Both the position numbers and the translations under genes were made by a program. 64,000 nucleotides of DNA from NCBI RefSeq assembly GCF_027594425.1, contig NZ_CP115159.1, forward strand, positions 2,627,001 to 2,691,000, written 5' to 3'. The notes below the pieces were generated by a model. The model was given only the letters and a program-made list of their open reading frames with translations. It was not told where the DNA came from and searched no databases. This DNA is from Zunongwangia sp. HGR-M22. Its GTDB lineage: Bacteria; Bacteroidota; Bacteroidia; Flavobacteriales; Flavobacteriaceae. Shown one piece after another: positions 46,418 through 48,428 of the stretch; within the stretch, counting starts at the first letter, position 1; each line of letters starts with the position of its first letter.

Positions 46418-46795
46418 ATGAGCATATTTTCATCGCTATTGGGCAACGCCGGGGCTATTAGTAAAGAGAAACTGGAAGAGAAATATCATAAGCTATTAAT
46501 CCCTTCAGAGAATATAGAAGCTGGATTTAAATTAATTAGAGATACTTTTATATTCACCAATAAAAGATTAATTCTGGTAGATATTCAGGGTTTAACTGGA
46601 AAGAAAACCGAATATTTTTCAGTGACTTATAAAAGTATAAGTCGGTTTAGCGTAGAAACCGCCGGAAGTTTTGATTTGGATGCTGAACTAAAAATTTGGA
46701 TTTCTGGGGAACAAAATCCTTCTATAAGTAAAAGGTTCAATACAAGTGTCGATATTTATGAAGTACAGAAAATACTGGCCTCTTTTGTTCTTTAA
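46418..46795 (+). CDS. Bacterial PH-domain protein
   Basis: A 125-residue soluble protein with the bacterial PH-like fold: VIPSENIEAGFKLI-type strand (here LLIPSENIEAGFKLI), DTFIFTNKRLILVDIQG, GKKTEYFSVTYKSISRFSVETAG, and LKIWISG, ending in a C-terminal helix. These YozB/YvbH-like proteins are small, widespread and of unknown role. Single gene, preceded by a large hairpin. Confidence 0.85.
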   Translation: MSIFSSLLGNAGAISKEKLEEKYHKLLIPSENIEAGFKLIRDTFIFTNKRLILVDIQGLTGKKTEYFSVTYKSISRFSVETAGSFDLDAELKIWISGEQNPSISKRFNTSVDIYEVQKILASFVL

Positions 46796-46891
46796 TTGTC
46801 TCTCTAAGAATCGCAAAATTAAATTTAACCGAATAGATATCCATATTTTCAGTAATAGATCCCAGACTTATTTGGCATACAATTATTCACT

Positions 46892-47416
46892 TCAGTCACA
46901 TAGTGAACATTGCGATTGACCGACAAGTTTACCCTCAGTATTTGTTTCGTATTTACAGCATTCTTTAAAGCGATTTTTCATTATCTTTTTTGATCTTCGA
47001 ATAAGCGCTTTAGCATTCGCCAGTGAAAGACTTGCTAATTCTGCGGCTTCCTTTTGTGGTTTTCCATCAACATAAACGAGCTTCATAAGCCTGCGATTTT
47101 TTTCTGGCAACTCGTTCAAAAATTTATCAAAACAACAAACTTGAGTAAAAGGACTAGAATCCTCTTCTGAATTCTGGAATCTTATGTCCCTTACACAATA
47201 TACCGAGTCTTTAAAGTAATCGTTAATCTCATTTCTAATAATCTGAAAGATCCAGGATTTCAATTTACCTGGATTTTTCAGTTTATCTAAGTTTTTATGA
47301 ATTTTTATAAACGAATTTTGTAGAATATCATTAGTATGCTCTTCATTCTTTACTCTTTTCAGAATAAAGAAATAAAACTCGATATGGTATTTTTCCCAAA
47401 TTTCTCTGGTATTCAT
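46892..47416 (-). CDS. sigZ: SigZ-like ECF RNA polymerase sigma factor with Cys-rich tail
   Basis: A 174-residue group IV sigma factor. Sigma-2 region at about residues 5-75 (YHIEFYFFILKRVKNEEH, DILQNSFIKIHKNL, LKSWIFQIIRNEINDYF); sigma-4 helix-turn-helix at about 95-150 (NRRLMKLVYVDGKPQKEAAEL, SLANAKALIRRSKK). The tail has Cys at 153, 154, 170 and 173 (ECCKYE ... CSLCD), resembling a metal or redox switch. The frame can start at GTG 47455, but the ATG at 47416 is 4 nt behind the stop of a cysteine-rich peptide gene and gives a normal SigZ N terminus. No anti-sigma factor gene with a membrane domain is adjacent. Confidence 0.85.
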   Translation of the reverse strand: MNTREIWEKYHIEFYFFILKRVKNEEHTNDILQNSFIKIHKNLDKLKNPGKLKSWIFQIIRNEINDYFKDSVYCVRDIRFQNSEEDSSPFTQVCCFDKFLNELPEKNRRLMKLVYVDGKPQKEAAELASLSLANAKALIRRSKKIMKNRFKECCKYETNTEGKLVGQSQCSLCD

Positions 47417-47420
47417 ACAC

Positions 47421-47546
47421 TTATAATTCTTTGCCGCAGCAAGAACATTTATCACAATTGCATTCTTTACACGGGCAATTAGCAGCGGCGCAATTTATAC
47501 AATTACATTTATCGCATTCGCACTGGGTACAATTACATTTACTCAT
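47421..47546 (-). CDS. Cysteine-rich metallothionein-like peptide, first gene of the sigma operon
   Basis: A 41-residue open frame, ATG to TAA, below the usual gene-finding threshold. It has 14 Cys (34%), no His and no aromatic residues. The Cys fall into two halves of seven (residues 4-19 and 24-37) joined by AAAN. Each half contains the pattern CxCxxCxCDKCxC, so the peptide is an internal duplication. Spacing is almost entirely CxC and CxxC, as in metallothioneins. The stop lies 4 nt before the sigma factor ATG. An ECF-like promoter precedes it. It could bind and store metal or act as a sensor for the sigma factor; I know of no named family for it. Confidence 0.75.
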   Translation of the reverse strand: MSKCNCTQCECDKCNCINCAAANCPCKECNCDKCSCCGKEL

Positions 47547-47564
47547 ATCTACAGGTTTTTATTT

Positions 47565-47593
47565 GTAGACTGAAAATGCTATAAAAAGATACA
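47565..47593 (-). promoter_or_regulatory. ECF-like promoter of the Cys-rich peptide / sigma operon
   Basis: Minus-strand TGTATC (47593-47588), 17 nt, GTCTAC (47570-47565), 18 nt upstream of the ATG. It is close to the TGTAAC / GTC pattern used by Bacteroidota ECF sigma factors and suggests autoregulation by the encoded SigZ. Confidence 0.4.
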
Positions 47594-47609
47594 ATTTTAC
47601 ATATAAAAT

Positions 47610-48428
47610 TTATCCATTACCATTAAAACCAGGATAGCATGTCATTCCGCCATCCACAAATATTGTTGTACCGTTAATGTATTCAGATTCATCAGATGCC
47701 AGCCAGGATGCTACACTGCCAATGTCTTCAGGTTCTCCAATTTCGTCATAAGGAATCACCTTTTTCATTTTTTTACGGCCTTCTTCAGTACTCCAAACAT
47801 CTTTATTAATTTCAGTTTTAATAGCGCCCGGGGCAATGCTATTACAGCGTATTTTTCTAGACGCATATTCCTGGCAGATACTTTTCATTAACATTTCAAT
47901 TCCTCCCTTAGATGCTGCATAATTTGCATGCCCGGCCCAAGGAATAATCTCGTGTACCGAACTCATAGTTATAATTTTCCCAAGAGATTTAGAAACTTTT
48001 GGTCGCATACCTCGATTCAGAAATTCGATAATCGCTTCTTTACAGCAAAGAAATTGTCCCGTAAGATTTAGAGCTATTACCTGGTTCCATTGATCTAATG
48101 TCATTTTATGCAATTCAGCATCTTGTTGCATTCCTGCATTAGGGACGCAAATATCTATAGTCCCAAATTTGTCTATTCCTTTTTTAAAAAGTTGCTTTAC
48201 TTCTTTTTCTTTACTTACATCTGCCTTTACTACTATGGTCTCTCCACCTGCTTTACACTCGCTTATTTCGTTAGCGACATCTTCAGCTTCTTCTTTACTA
48301 GAATGATAATTTATAACAATATTTGCGCCTTCTTTGCCCATAGCCAATGCTACGGCTTTACCTATGCCAGAACTGGATCCTGTGATAATAGCAGTCTGTC
48401 CTTCTAGTCTTTTATTGGGTGTATGCAT
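47610..48428 (-). CDS. SDR family oxidoreductase (glucose 1-dehydrogenase-like)
   Basis: A 272-residue classical short-chain dehydrogenase. Cofactor loop ITGSSSGIGKAVALAMG, NAG at PNAGMQQD, catalytic Ser in ITMSSVHEI and the YAASKGG Tyr/Lys pair, then CNSIAPGAIKTEI. The layout and length fit glucose 1-dehydrogenase-type or general sugar/stress SDRs; substrate unknown. The Cys-rich peptide/sigma operon begins 63 nt downstream on the same strand, so read-through is possible. Confidence 0.9.
   Translation of the reverse strand: MHTPNKRLEGQTAIITGSSSGIGKAVALAMGKEGANIVINYHSSKEEAEDVANEISECKAGGETIVVKADVSKEKEVKQLFKKGIDKFGTIDICVPNAGMQQDAELHKMTLDQWNQVIALNLTGQFLCCKEAIIEFLNRGMRPKVSKSLGKIITMSSVHEIIPWAGHANYAASKGGIEMLMKSICQEYASRKIRCNSIAPGAIKTEINKDVWSTEEGRKKMKKVIPYDEIGEPEDIGSVASWLASDESEYINGTTIFVDGGMTCYPGFNGNG

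What the first reader, a model, noticed from the sequence alone, without database searches (positions are those of the whole stretch)
46892..47546. Cysteine-rich duplicated peptide coupled to a SigZ-like sigma factor
A 41-residue ORF with 14 Cys in two matching 7-Cys halves (each CxCxxCxCDKCxC) ends 4 nt before the start of a SigZ-like sigma factor whose tail carries four more Cys (CC...CxxC). No anti-sigma gene is adjacent. A metallothionein-like peptide could buffer a metal sensed by the sigma tail, act as a peptide anti-sigma factor, or be the main output of an autoregulated stress response. I know of no described pair of this kind.
Basis: partly seen in the sequence, partly recalled or inferred. 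Interest (0 to 1): 0.75.

Follow-up and report, generated by a model that had tools for sequence, protein, structure and literature searches.

The report
Metallothionein-like peptide with private sigma factor
A tiny cysteine-packed peptide and a gene-switching protein that itself carries cysteines are kept together behind a matching promoter in dozens of related bacteria, and look like a self-contained metal or metalloid defence switch.

Summary
In detail: a 41-aa, 14-Cys ORF (47421-47546, -) ends 4 nt before a SigZ-like ECF sigma gene (46892-47416, -) with a CC...CxxC tail and no adjacent anti-sigma gene. It is not chance. Of 48 sigma places in 299 genomes of the family, 45 have a Cys-rich peptide (14- or 11-Cys type) just upstream and 1 downstream. 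A 14-Cys profile hits 17 of those genomes; 16 hits lie at the sigma. An ECF-type promoter (TGYATC-17 nt-GTCTA, at most two of 16 scored positions off) precedes the peptide in 36 of 36 loci aligned; its strict form occurs once in this genome, so the regulon may be this operon alone. At peptide-free relatives the motif stands before arsM, arsI/cadI-acr3 or a cation-efflux gene, and two peptide-sigma pairs sit right behind arsC-like and acr3 genes. Cysteines in the sigma linker and tail recall CorE. Best reading: a metal(loid)-activated, self-transcribing sigma factor whose main output is a metallothionein-like peptide. Metal binding, inducer and promoter recognition are inferred. Ten searches of open papers showed no description of the pair. 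New variant of a known kind.

The parts
47565..47593 (-). ECF-type promoter-like site, TGTATCTTTTT-N12-GTCTAC (17 nt between TGTATC and GTCTAC); ends 18 nt before the peptide ATG
   Evidence: like sites upstream of 36 of 36 aligned peptides; only strict match in the genome
47421..47546 (-). 41-aa, 14-Cys metallothionein-like peptide
   Evidence: 13 Cys invariant in 19 aligned relatives, the 14th missing in one; purifying selection; found next to the sigma gene
47417..47420 (-). 4-nt gap between peptide stop and sigma start; no hairpin here, unlike in 26 of 36 loci aligned
46892..47416 (-). SigZ-like ECF sigma factor, 174 aa, regions 2 and 4
   Evidence: PF04542 and PF08281 above cut-off; SigZ models TIGR02959 and NF007215 matched but below cut-off
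47132..47137 (-). linker Cys pair C94-C95 (CCFDKF) between sigma regions 2 and 4
   Evidence: at least one linker Cys in 65 of 65 peptide-bearing relatives against 15 of 32 others
46898..46960 (-). Cys tail: C153-C154 ... C170xxC173
   Evidence: CC in 65 of 65, C170 in 65 of 65, C173 in 64 of 65 peptide-bearing relatives

Best explanation
A two-gene, self-contained stress module. The sigma factor has no anti-sigma; soft metal or metalloid ions (arsenite-like, or Cd/Zn/Cu-like) bind the cysteines of its linker and C-terminal tail and switch it on, as proposed for CorE. The active sigma transcribes its own promoter just upstream of the peptide gene. Much peptide is made (a hairpin after the peptide gene probably limits read-through in most relatives, not in the window) and some sigma. 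The peptide binds the metal(loid) as a metallothionein and, by lowering the free ion, switches the sigma off again. Shown by sequence: the conserved pair, protein-level selection, the promoter-like site and its place, the Cys positions, arsenic/metal genes behind the same motif at related loci. Inferred: that this sigma reads that promoter, that the tail senses metal, that the peptide binds metal, the ion, and the feedback.
For: Pairing: 45 of 48 sigma places in 299 family genomes with an upstream Cys-rich peptide (one of them a decaying copy), 1 more downstream; 16 of 17 peptide-profile hits in the same genomes at the sigma. Promoter: site upstream of 36 of 36 aligned peptides and, by a strict expression, of 42 of the 48 sigmas, all peptide-bearing; pattern 44 hits in 80 genomes against 1 for the reversed control, 26 of the 44 within 29 nt of a Cys-rich ORF; 4 hits against 3 control in 80 family genomes without a close sigma. 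Promoter type goes with peptide type: GTATC in 23 of 23 14-Cys loci, TGC in 13 of 13 11-Cys loci. Sigma Cys conservation. Same motif before arsM twice, arsI/cadI-acr3, a Cation_efflux gene and, after a 78-aa ORF, an ArsP_1 permease. Arsenic/metal query hits at 16 of 32 SigZ-type loci against 1 of 18 control stretches; 13 of 29 after removing the three loci that gave queries (Fisher p 0.007). arsC-like and acr3 directly before the pair in two genomes. No other ORF of 90 aa or more shared among 26 loci: sigma 26 of 26, next best 6 of 26.
Against: No expression, metal or binding data. The metal queries hit only 3 of 26 peptide-type loci within about 5 kb (L168, from the other set, is a further one), so the arsenic link rests mainly on peptide-free SigZ relatives. 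Some motif-linked genes are not obviously metal genes (PAP2 twice by Pfam; PhzF-like, MATE-like and TonB-receptor-like by eye). Four of 44 motif hits lie inside ORFs and one (G058) overlaps a gene start. Of five plasmid regions opened, two SigZ neighbourhoods have no arsenic genes and one has no annotation. The linker-Cys/peptide association is not shown to be independent of kinship: only 3 usable pairs.
Confidence: 0.6

Rival explanations
1. Thiol or redox module: the sigma cysteines sense disulfide, electrophile or reactive-sulfur stress and the peptide is a thiol buffer, metals being incidental.
For: Cys pairs suit redox sensing (general knowledge); at one SigZ locus (G529) the motif stands before a MATE-like gene and then a glutamate-cysteine-ligase-like gene (read by eye).
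Against: Of the motif-linked genes with a family match, those for arsenic or metals outnumber the others, and metal queries hit 16 of 32 SigZ-type loci; strict CxC/CxxC spacing in the peptide is typical of metal clusters (general knowledge).
Confidence: 0.2
2. Peptide anti-sigma: the peptide, perhaps metal-loaded, binds and silences the sigma factor and releases it on stress.
For: Adjacent small partner, probably co-transcribed; no other shared ORF of 90 aa or more among 26 loci (smaller ORFs were not clustered).
Against: The peptide has few hydrophobic residues for an interface; its type and place vary (up- or downstream of the sigma); two members of the sigma clade have none (L017, L030). 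For CorE, too, no anti-sigma was found (PMC3107203, passages).
Confidence: 0.12
3. Cysteine attenuator: the ORF is a leader peptide whose Cys codons stall ribosomes when Cys-tRNA is short and so control the sigma gene through the hairpin.
For: Up to 14 Cys codons, then a stable hairpin in the 50 nt after the peptide stop in 18 of 23 14-Cys and 8 of 13 11-Cys loci (z <= -2).
Against: In 5 loci the Cys-rich ORF lies downstream of the sigma; in the window and its three orthologues of the genus (L014-L016) there is no hairpin and the gap is 4-19 nt; Cys evenly spaced, not in runs; purifying selection on the protein; no Rfam element in 46700-47900.
Confidence: 0.06
4. Chance ORF beside an ordinary SigZ.
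For: Small ORF of biased composition.
Against: Peptide at 46 of 48 relatives, conserved promoter, dN below dS.
Confidence: 0.01

Closest known systems
CorE and CorE2 of Myxococcus xanthus (former ECF44, ECF238)
   Same: ECF sigma without linked anti-sigma, Cys-rich C-terminal extension and a Cys motif in the region 2-4 linker; metal genes as targets (PMC3107203 and PMC8999054, passages)
   Different: Here the linker has CC or a single C, not CxC; the tail is CC-x15-CxxC rather than CorE's conserved Cys pattern; the neighbour and likely target is a Cys-rich peptide; sigma of SigZ type
SigZ (TIGR02959, NF007215)
   Same: Best-matching named sigma families; CC after region 4 is common to many SigZ-type relatives
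   Different: Below both curated cut-offs (127.9 of 168.65 and 141.3 of 212 bits); the tree places the 14-Cys clade apart from the set that holds the 11-Cys and the over-cut-off SigZ proteins (SH-aLRT 96)
Bacterial metallothioneins under a metal sensor (SmtA/SmtB, MymT/RicR)
   Same: Small Cys-rich peptide expected under a metal-responsive regulator (recalled; both regulator pairs are named in passages of PMC10141476)
   Different: A sigma factor beside it instead of a repressor; the peptides match no Pfam, NCBIfam or PDB entry
ars operons
   Same: arsC-like, acr3, arsM, arsI/cadI found with SigZ-type relatives, some behind the same promoter motif
   Different: At 23 of 26 peptide-type loci no such gene was found within about 5 kb

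Membership tests
CorE-like ECF sigma factors | No anti-sigma gene linked | tested here: met
   in the window; no ORF of 90 aa or more but the sigma is shared by more than 6 of 26 loci
[quoted passage not shown]
   CC in the 14-Cys clade, single C in the 11-Cys clade
CorE-like ECF sigma factors | C-terminal extension with the four invariant Cys of the 21 CRD sigmas (CorE 181, 184, 192, 194) | tested here: not met
   Tail is CC-x15-CxxC; spacing differs from the residue numbers given in PMC3107203; no CorE sequence was aligned
CorE-like ECF sigma factors | Metal-dependent DNA binding | not testable with these tools
   Needs purified protein
SigZ (TIGR02959) | Score above curated cut-off | tested here: not met
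   127.9 bits against 168.65; 'SigZ-like' only
Metallothionein | Small, very Cys-rich, CxC/CxxC spaced, no aromatic residues | tested here: met
   14 Cys of 41, no H, F, W or Y; 13 Cys invariant in 19 relatives, one missing in a single row
Metallothionein | Match to a catalogued metallothionein family or structure | tested here: not met
   Pfam: 0 for the window peptide and for 19 14-Cys members; NCBIfam: 0 for the window peptide and 13 11-Cys members; PDB: 0 chains
Metallothionein | Binds metal in thiolate clusters | not testable with these tools
   Needs expression and spectroscopy
Autoregulated ECF sigma | Conserved ECF-type promoter before its own operon | tested here: met
   that this sigma reads it is inferred from co-occurrence

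The most novel reading that the evidence does not exclude
SigZ-type sigma factors of Bacteroidota, and relatives elsewhere, form a previously unrecognised class of anti-sigma-free, metal(loid)-sensing sigma factors reading one promoter type (TGYRTC-17-GTCTA). Again and again they have acquired a Cys-rich mini-peptide (14-Cys, 11-Cys, downstream and other types) as private target, reaching the minimal form seen here: a regulon of one operon in which sensor, output and brake are two genes, the peptide competing with the sigma's own cysteines for the ion.
Probability: 0.35. Interest if true: 0.85.

Novelty: new variant of a known kind. Interest (0 to 1): 0.73.

Why it matters
SigZ has had a name but, as far as I recall, no known function. 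The promoter motif and its targets make that function directly testable, with arsenite and soft metals first. If right, the module is one of the smallest complete metal-response circuits: a promoter, a peptide of about 40 residues and its own sigma factor, usable as a biosensor part. It also points to sets of metallothionein-like peptides in Bacteroidota that are absent from the family libraries searched here, perhaps because they are so short and so Cys-rich (inference).

Tried and rejected
Cys attenuator considered and largely rejected (downstream copies, codon evidence, no Rfam hit). Wider regulon in the own genome: the 2-mismatch pattern gave 9 sites including the true one against 11 for the reversed control, so no further target is claimed. 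Kinship-corrected test of linker Cys against peptide: only 3 usable pairs, uninformative. Sigma-70 promoter scan of 46700-47900: 4 sites against a mean of 5.9 in shuffles. Family and PDB searches with the peptides: nothing. Bufferin-like or other modified-peptide clusters were thought of from memory; no shared maturation gene of 90 aa or more exists among 26 loci. Structure prediction was not run: as described, its output gives no coordinates with which to measure Cys-Cys distances. The dN/dS pair L035/L034 was thrown off by a one-codon offset and is not used; dS was saturated in two pairs. The 17-nt spacing was built into the scoring scan; it was first read from the raw sequences.

Dropped rows: L007 and L008 from the 36-locus set because their contigs have the same lengths and sigma identities as L014 and L015; L017 and L030 because they have no peptide. 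Small Cys-rich ORFs were called with thresholds, so the one of G403 (L163), inside a longer ORF, is counted as none. In one search each motif string was looked up once among the loci, so G298, G073 and G277 were read in a sister genome with the identical string; for G298 and G073 one search shows the same arrangement. A checkpoint note of mine gives 4 of 26 for metal genes at peptide-type loci; the call shows 3 of 26.

Literature: ten searches of the open PMC library. SigZ+metallothionein 0 papers; ECF sigma factor+cysteine-rich domain+CorE 2; SigZ+Bacteroidetes 1; metallothionein+sigma factor+Bacteroidetes 2; ECF287 1; SigZ+sigma factor+cysteine 3; SigZ+arsenic 3; arsenic resistance+ECF sigma factor 6; metallothionein+ECF sigma 8; 'sigma factor SigZ' 0. 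From titles and abstract starts none describes such a pair. Passages were read of PMC8999054, PMC3107203, PMC12563154 and PMC10141476 (the last reports CorE homologue hits in all marine species surveyed, Bacteroidota included). The ECF reclassification paper (NAR 2021) is not held, so its groups could not be checked.

Full report
OBSERVATION. On the minus strand a 41-residue ORF with 14 Cys (47421-47546) ends 4 nt before the ATG of a 174-aa ECF sigma factor (46892-47416). The sigma has regions 2 and 4 (PF04542, PF08281) and matches SigZ models below their cut-offs. Besides the CC...CxxC tail it has a CC in the linker between the two regions. The neighbours are a PH-domain gene and an SDR gene; no anti-sigma is adjacent. 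The window is part of a 4.04-Mb genome; its nearest named relatives are two Zunongwangia species (74 and 72% identity).

CONSERVATION OF THE PAIR. A scan of genome contigs gave 7 loci; the 6 close relatives (Zunongwangia twice, Algibacter twice, Mesonia, a Saprospiraceae MAG) have a 37-38-aa, 14-Cys ORF just upstream of the sigma; the seventh, remote one (26% identity, Patescibacteria) has none. In the genus 5 of 6 genomes hold the sigma at E <= 1e-30, one of them twice; the one without the peptide (G004) has a cation-efflux gene in its place. In 299 genomes of the family, 47 genomes hold 48 sigma places at E <= 1e-25. All 48 were read: 45 have an upstream Cys-rich peptide on the same strand (one, G192, is a decaying copy), one (G113) only a downstream one, two (G230 and the second copy of G125) none. 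Two main types occur: 14 Cys in about 37 residues and 11 Cys in about 33. The reverse test is as strong: a profile of the 14-Cys type hits 17 of the 299 genomes, once each; 16 hits lie beside the sigma, the exception (G227) is an orphan. Among 19 aligned 14-Cys peptides 13 Cys are invariant and one is missing in a single row. Of 11 close pairs compared, 8 give dN below dS (0.01-0.17 against 0.06-2.9; the nearest, 0.032 against 0.058, rests on four changed codons), two are saturated in dS and one was misaligned; Cys codons switch between TGT and TGC while Cys stays. The pairs share sequences and are not all independent.

PROMOTER. Upstream of each of the 36 peptides aligned, a site fits TGYATCYTTTT-N-GTCTA with 17 nt between TGYATC and GTC, at most two of 16 scored positions off, 16-28 nt before the ATG (the spacing was part of the scan). 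A stricter expression finds it upstream of 42 of the 48 sigma places, all peptide-bearing. GTC in the -10 element is typical of ECF promoters (general knowledge). The 14-Cys group has GTATC (23 of 23), the 11-Cys group TGC (13 of 13). In the window genome the strict pattern occurs once; with two mismatches there are 9 sites against 11 for the reversed control, so there is no sign of a wider regulon. In 80 genomes (79 of the 90 sigma-bearing ones then known, and G227) a slightly looser pattern gives 44 hits against 1 in the control, in 40 of the 80 genomes; 26 stand within 29 nt of a Cys-rich ORF, 14 before another ORF start within 250 nt, 4 inside ORFs. In 80 family genomes without a close sigma it gives 4 hits against 3 control, and 2 of the 4 lie beside a SigZ-like gene after all, judged by eye. 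In the 50 nt after the peptide stop a stable hairpin is found (z <= -2) in 18 of 23 14-Cys and 8 of 13 11-Cys loci, but not in the window or its three orthologues in the genus (L014-L016); the second copy of G005 (L018) has it. I read it as a partial terminator that favours the peptide over the sigma.

WHAT THE SIGMA FAMILY DOES. TIGR02959 at E <= 1e-30 hits 44 of 296 genomes of the phylum at 45 places, 10 genomes over the cut-off. All 45 were read: by my thresholds 12 have an upstream Cys-rich peptide and 4 only a downstream one; G403 has another inside a longer ORF. Where the peptide is missing the motif can lead elsewhere: arsenite methyltransferase (two genomes, NF008823 above cut-off), ArsI/CadI followed by ACR3 (both above cut-off) with an arsenate-reductase-like gene further on (below cut-offs), and a Cation_efflux gene that takes the peptide's place directly before the sigma (G004). 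In G113, which has a downstream peptide, it stands at another place before a 78-aa ORF and then an ArsP_1 permease, next to a second sigma gene. Other motif-linked genes are a PAP2 protein (G349, by Pfam; alike in G479), and by eye PhzF-like, MATE-like with a glutamate-cysteine-ligase-like gene, and TonB-receptor-like genes.

With seven metal/arsenic query proteins, 16 of 32 SigZ-type neighbourhoods of 4.4-14 kb were hit against 1 of 18 control stretches from the same genomes (20 asked for, two did not exist). Without the three loci that supplied queries it is 13 of 29 (Fisher p 0.007). The 32 are 32 of the 45 places: the 29 without a called peptide and three with one; the 13 left out all bear a peptide. 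Of 26 peptide-type loci with about 5-kb flanks 3 were hit (L204, L214, L011), so most pairs stand alone. In L204 and in L168, from the other set, the order is arsC-like, acr3, 14-Cys peptide, sigma, the promoter motif lying between acr3 and peptide (arsR-like and chrA-like genes by eye in L168).

Five plasmid regions were opened out of 1160 records with a match. A betaproteobacterial plasmid has acr3, permease, arsM, arsC and then the sigma, whose tail however has C...CC in place of CC...CxxC. A Hymenobacter plasmid has the motif with a 16-nt spacer before the sigma and again before a 22-aa, 7-Cys ORF, with arsC and acr3 near. Two others (Priestia, Vibrio) show no arsenic genes, and one has no annotation.

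CYSTEINES OF THE SIGMA. In 97 distinct sigmas the 65 with a peptide have a linker Cys in 65, CC after region 4 in 65, C170 in 65 and C173 in 64. The 32 without have them in 15, 25-26, 27 and 21. Kinship may account for much of this: a pair test on the tree had only 3 usable pairs. The tree sets the window's 14-Cys clade (27 rows, SH-aLRT 92, two of them without peptide) apart from a group with the 11-Cys and the over-cut-off SigZ proteins (SH-aLRT 96), so peptide partners arose or were exchanged more than once, or are very old.

MECHANISM. CorE shows that an ECF sigma can be a metal sensor without a known anti-sigma through a Cys-rich tail and a linker Cys motif (PMC3107203 and PMC8999054, passages). 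The present sigma has the same kinds of parts but other spacings, so it is not filed under CorE. The peptide has the make-up of a metallothionein but matches no catalogued family. I propose: ion binds sigma cysteines, sigma transcribes the peptide-sigma operon, peptide binds the ion, sigma falls silent. Among 26 loci the sigma is the only ORF of 90 aa or more shared by all, the next best being in 6, as expected of a self-contained cassette.

NOVELTY. In ten searches of the open PMC library no paper was seen, by title and abstract start, that couples SigZ or a Cys-tailed ECF with a metallothionein-like peptide, or SigZ with arsenic; most subscription papers and the 2021 ECF classification were not available. 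I rate it a new variant of a known kind: metal-sensing sigma factor plus metallothionein, in a combination and sigma family for which I found no precedent.

Noticed in passing
L096:2007-2150 (G227): Orphan 14-Cys peptide with no SigZ in 4.1 kb and no promoter motif before it, next to toxin-antitoxin-like genes (by eye) and between two pieces of an lpd-like ORF.
   Followed up: partly
L156:1730-3074 (G004): In a close sigma relative the peptide is replaced by a 209-aa Cation_efflux protein behind the same promoter; a TonB-receptor-like gene downstream carries a near-match of the motif too, and in G230 a like gene carries a strict match.
   Followed up: partly
L016, L018 (G005): One genome of the window's genus holds two copies of the sigma-peptide pair with different peptides.
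   Followed up: no
L229:6030-6174 (Hymenobacter plasmid): A 22-aa, 7-Cys ORF, not in the record's gene table, behind the same motif (16-nt spacer), 2 kb from the sigma and near arsC-acr3.
   Followed up: partly
L111 (G192): Decaying copy: sigma with in-frame stops and a shortened 9-Cys ORF.
   Followed up: no
L077, L079, L085: Another Cys-rich peptide type, 26-27 aa (ECTCxECDC..C.C.CC), lies downstream of SigZ in three genomes of one distant family (f23).
   Followed up: partly
window:47610-50145: Two larger genes on the same strand precede the pair, one a trehalase-like gene (by eye) and one an SDR gene, as in L007 and L008; whether SDR read-through feeds the peptide is unknown.
   Followed up: no
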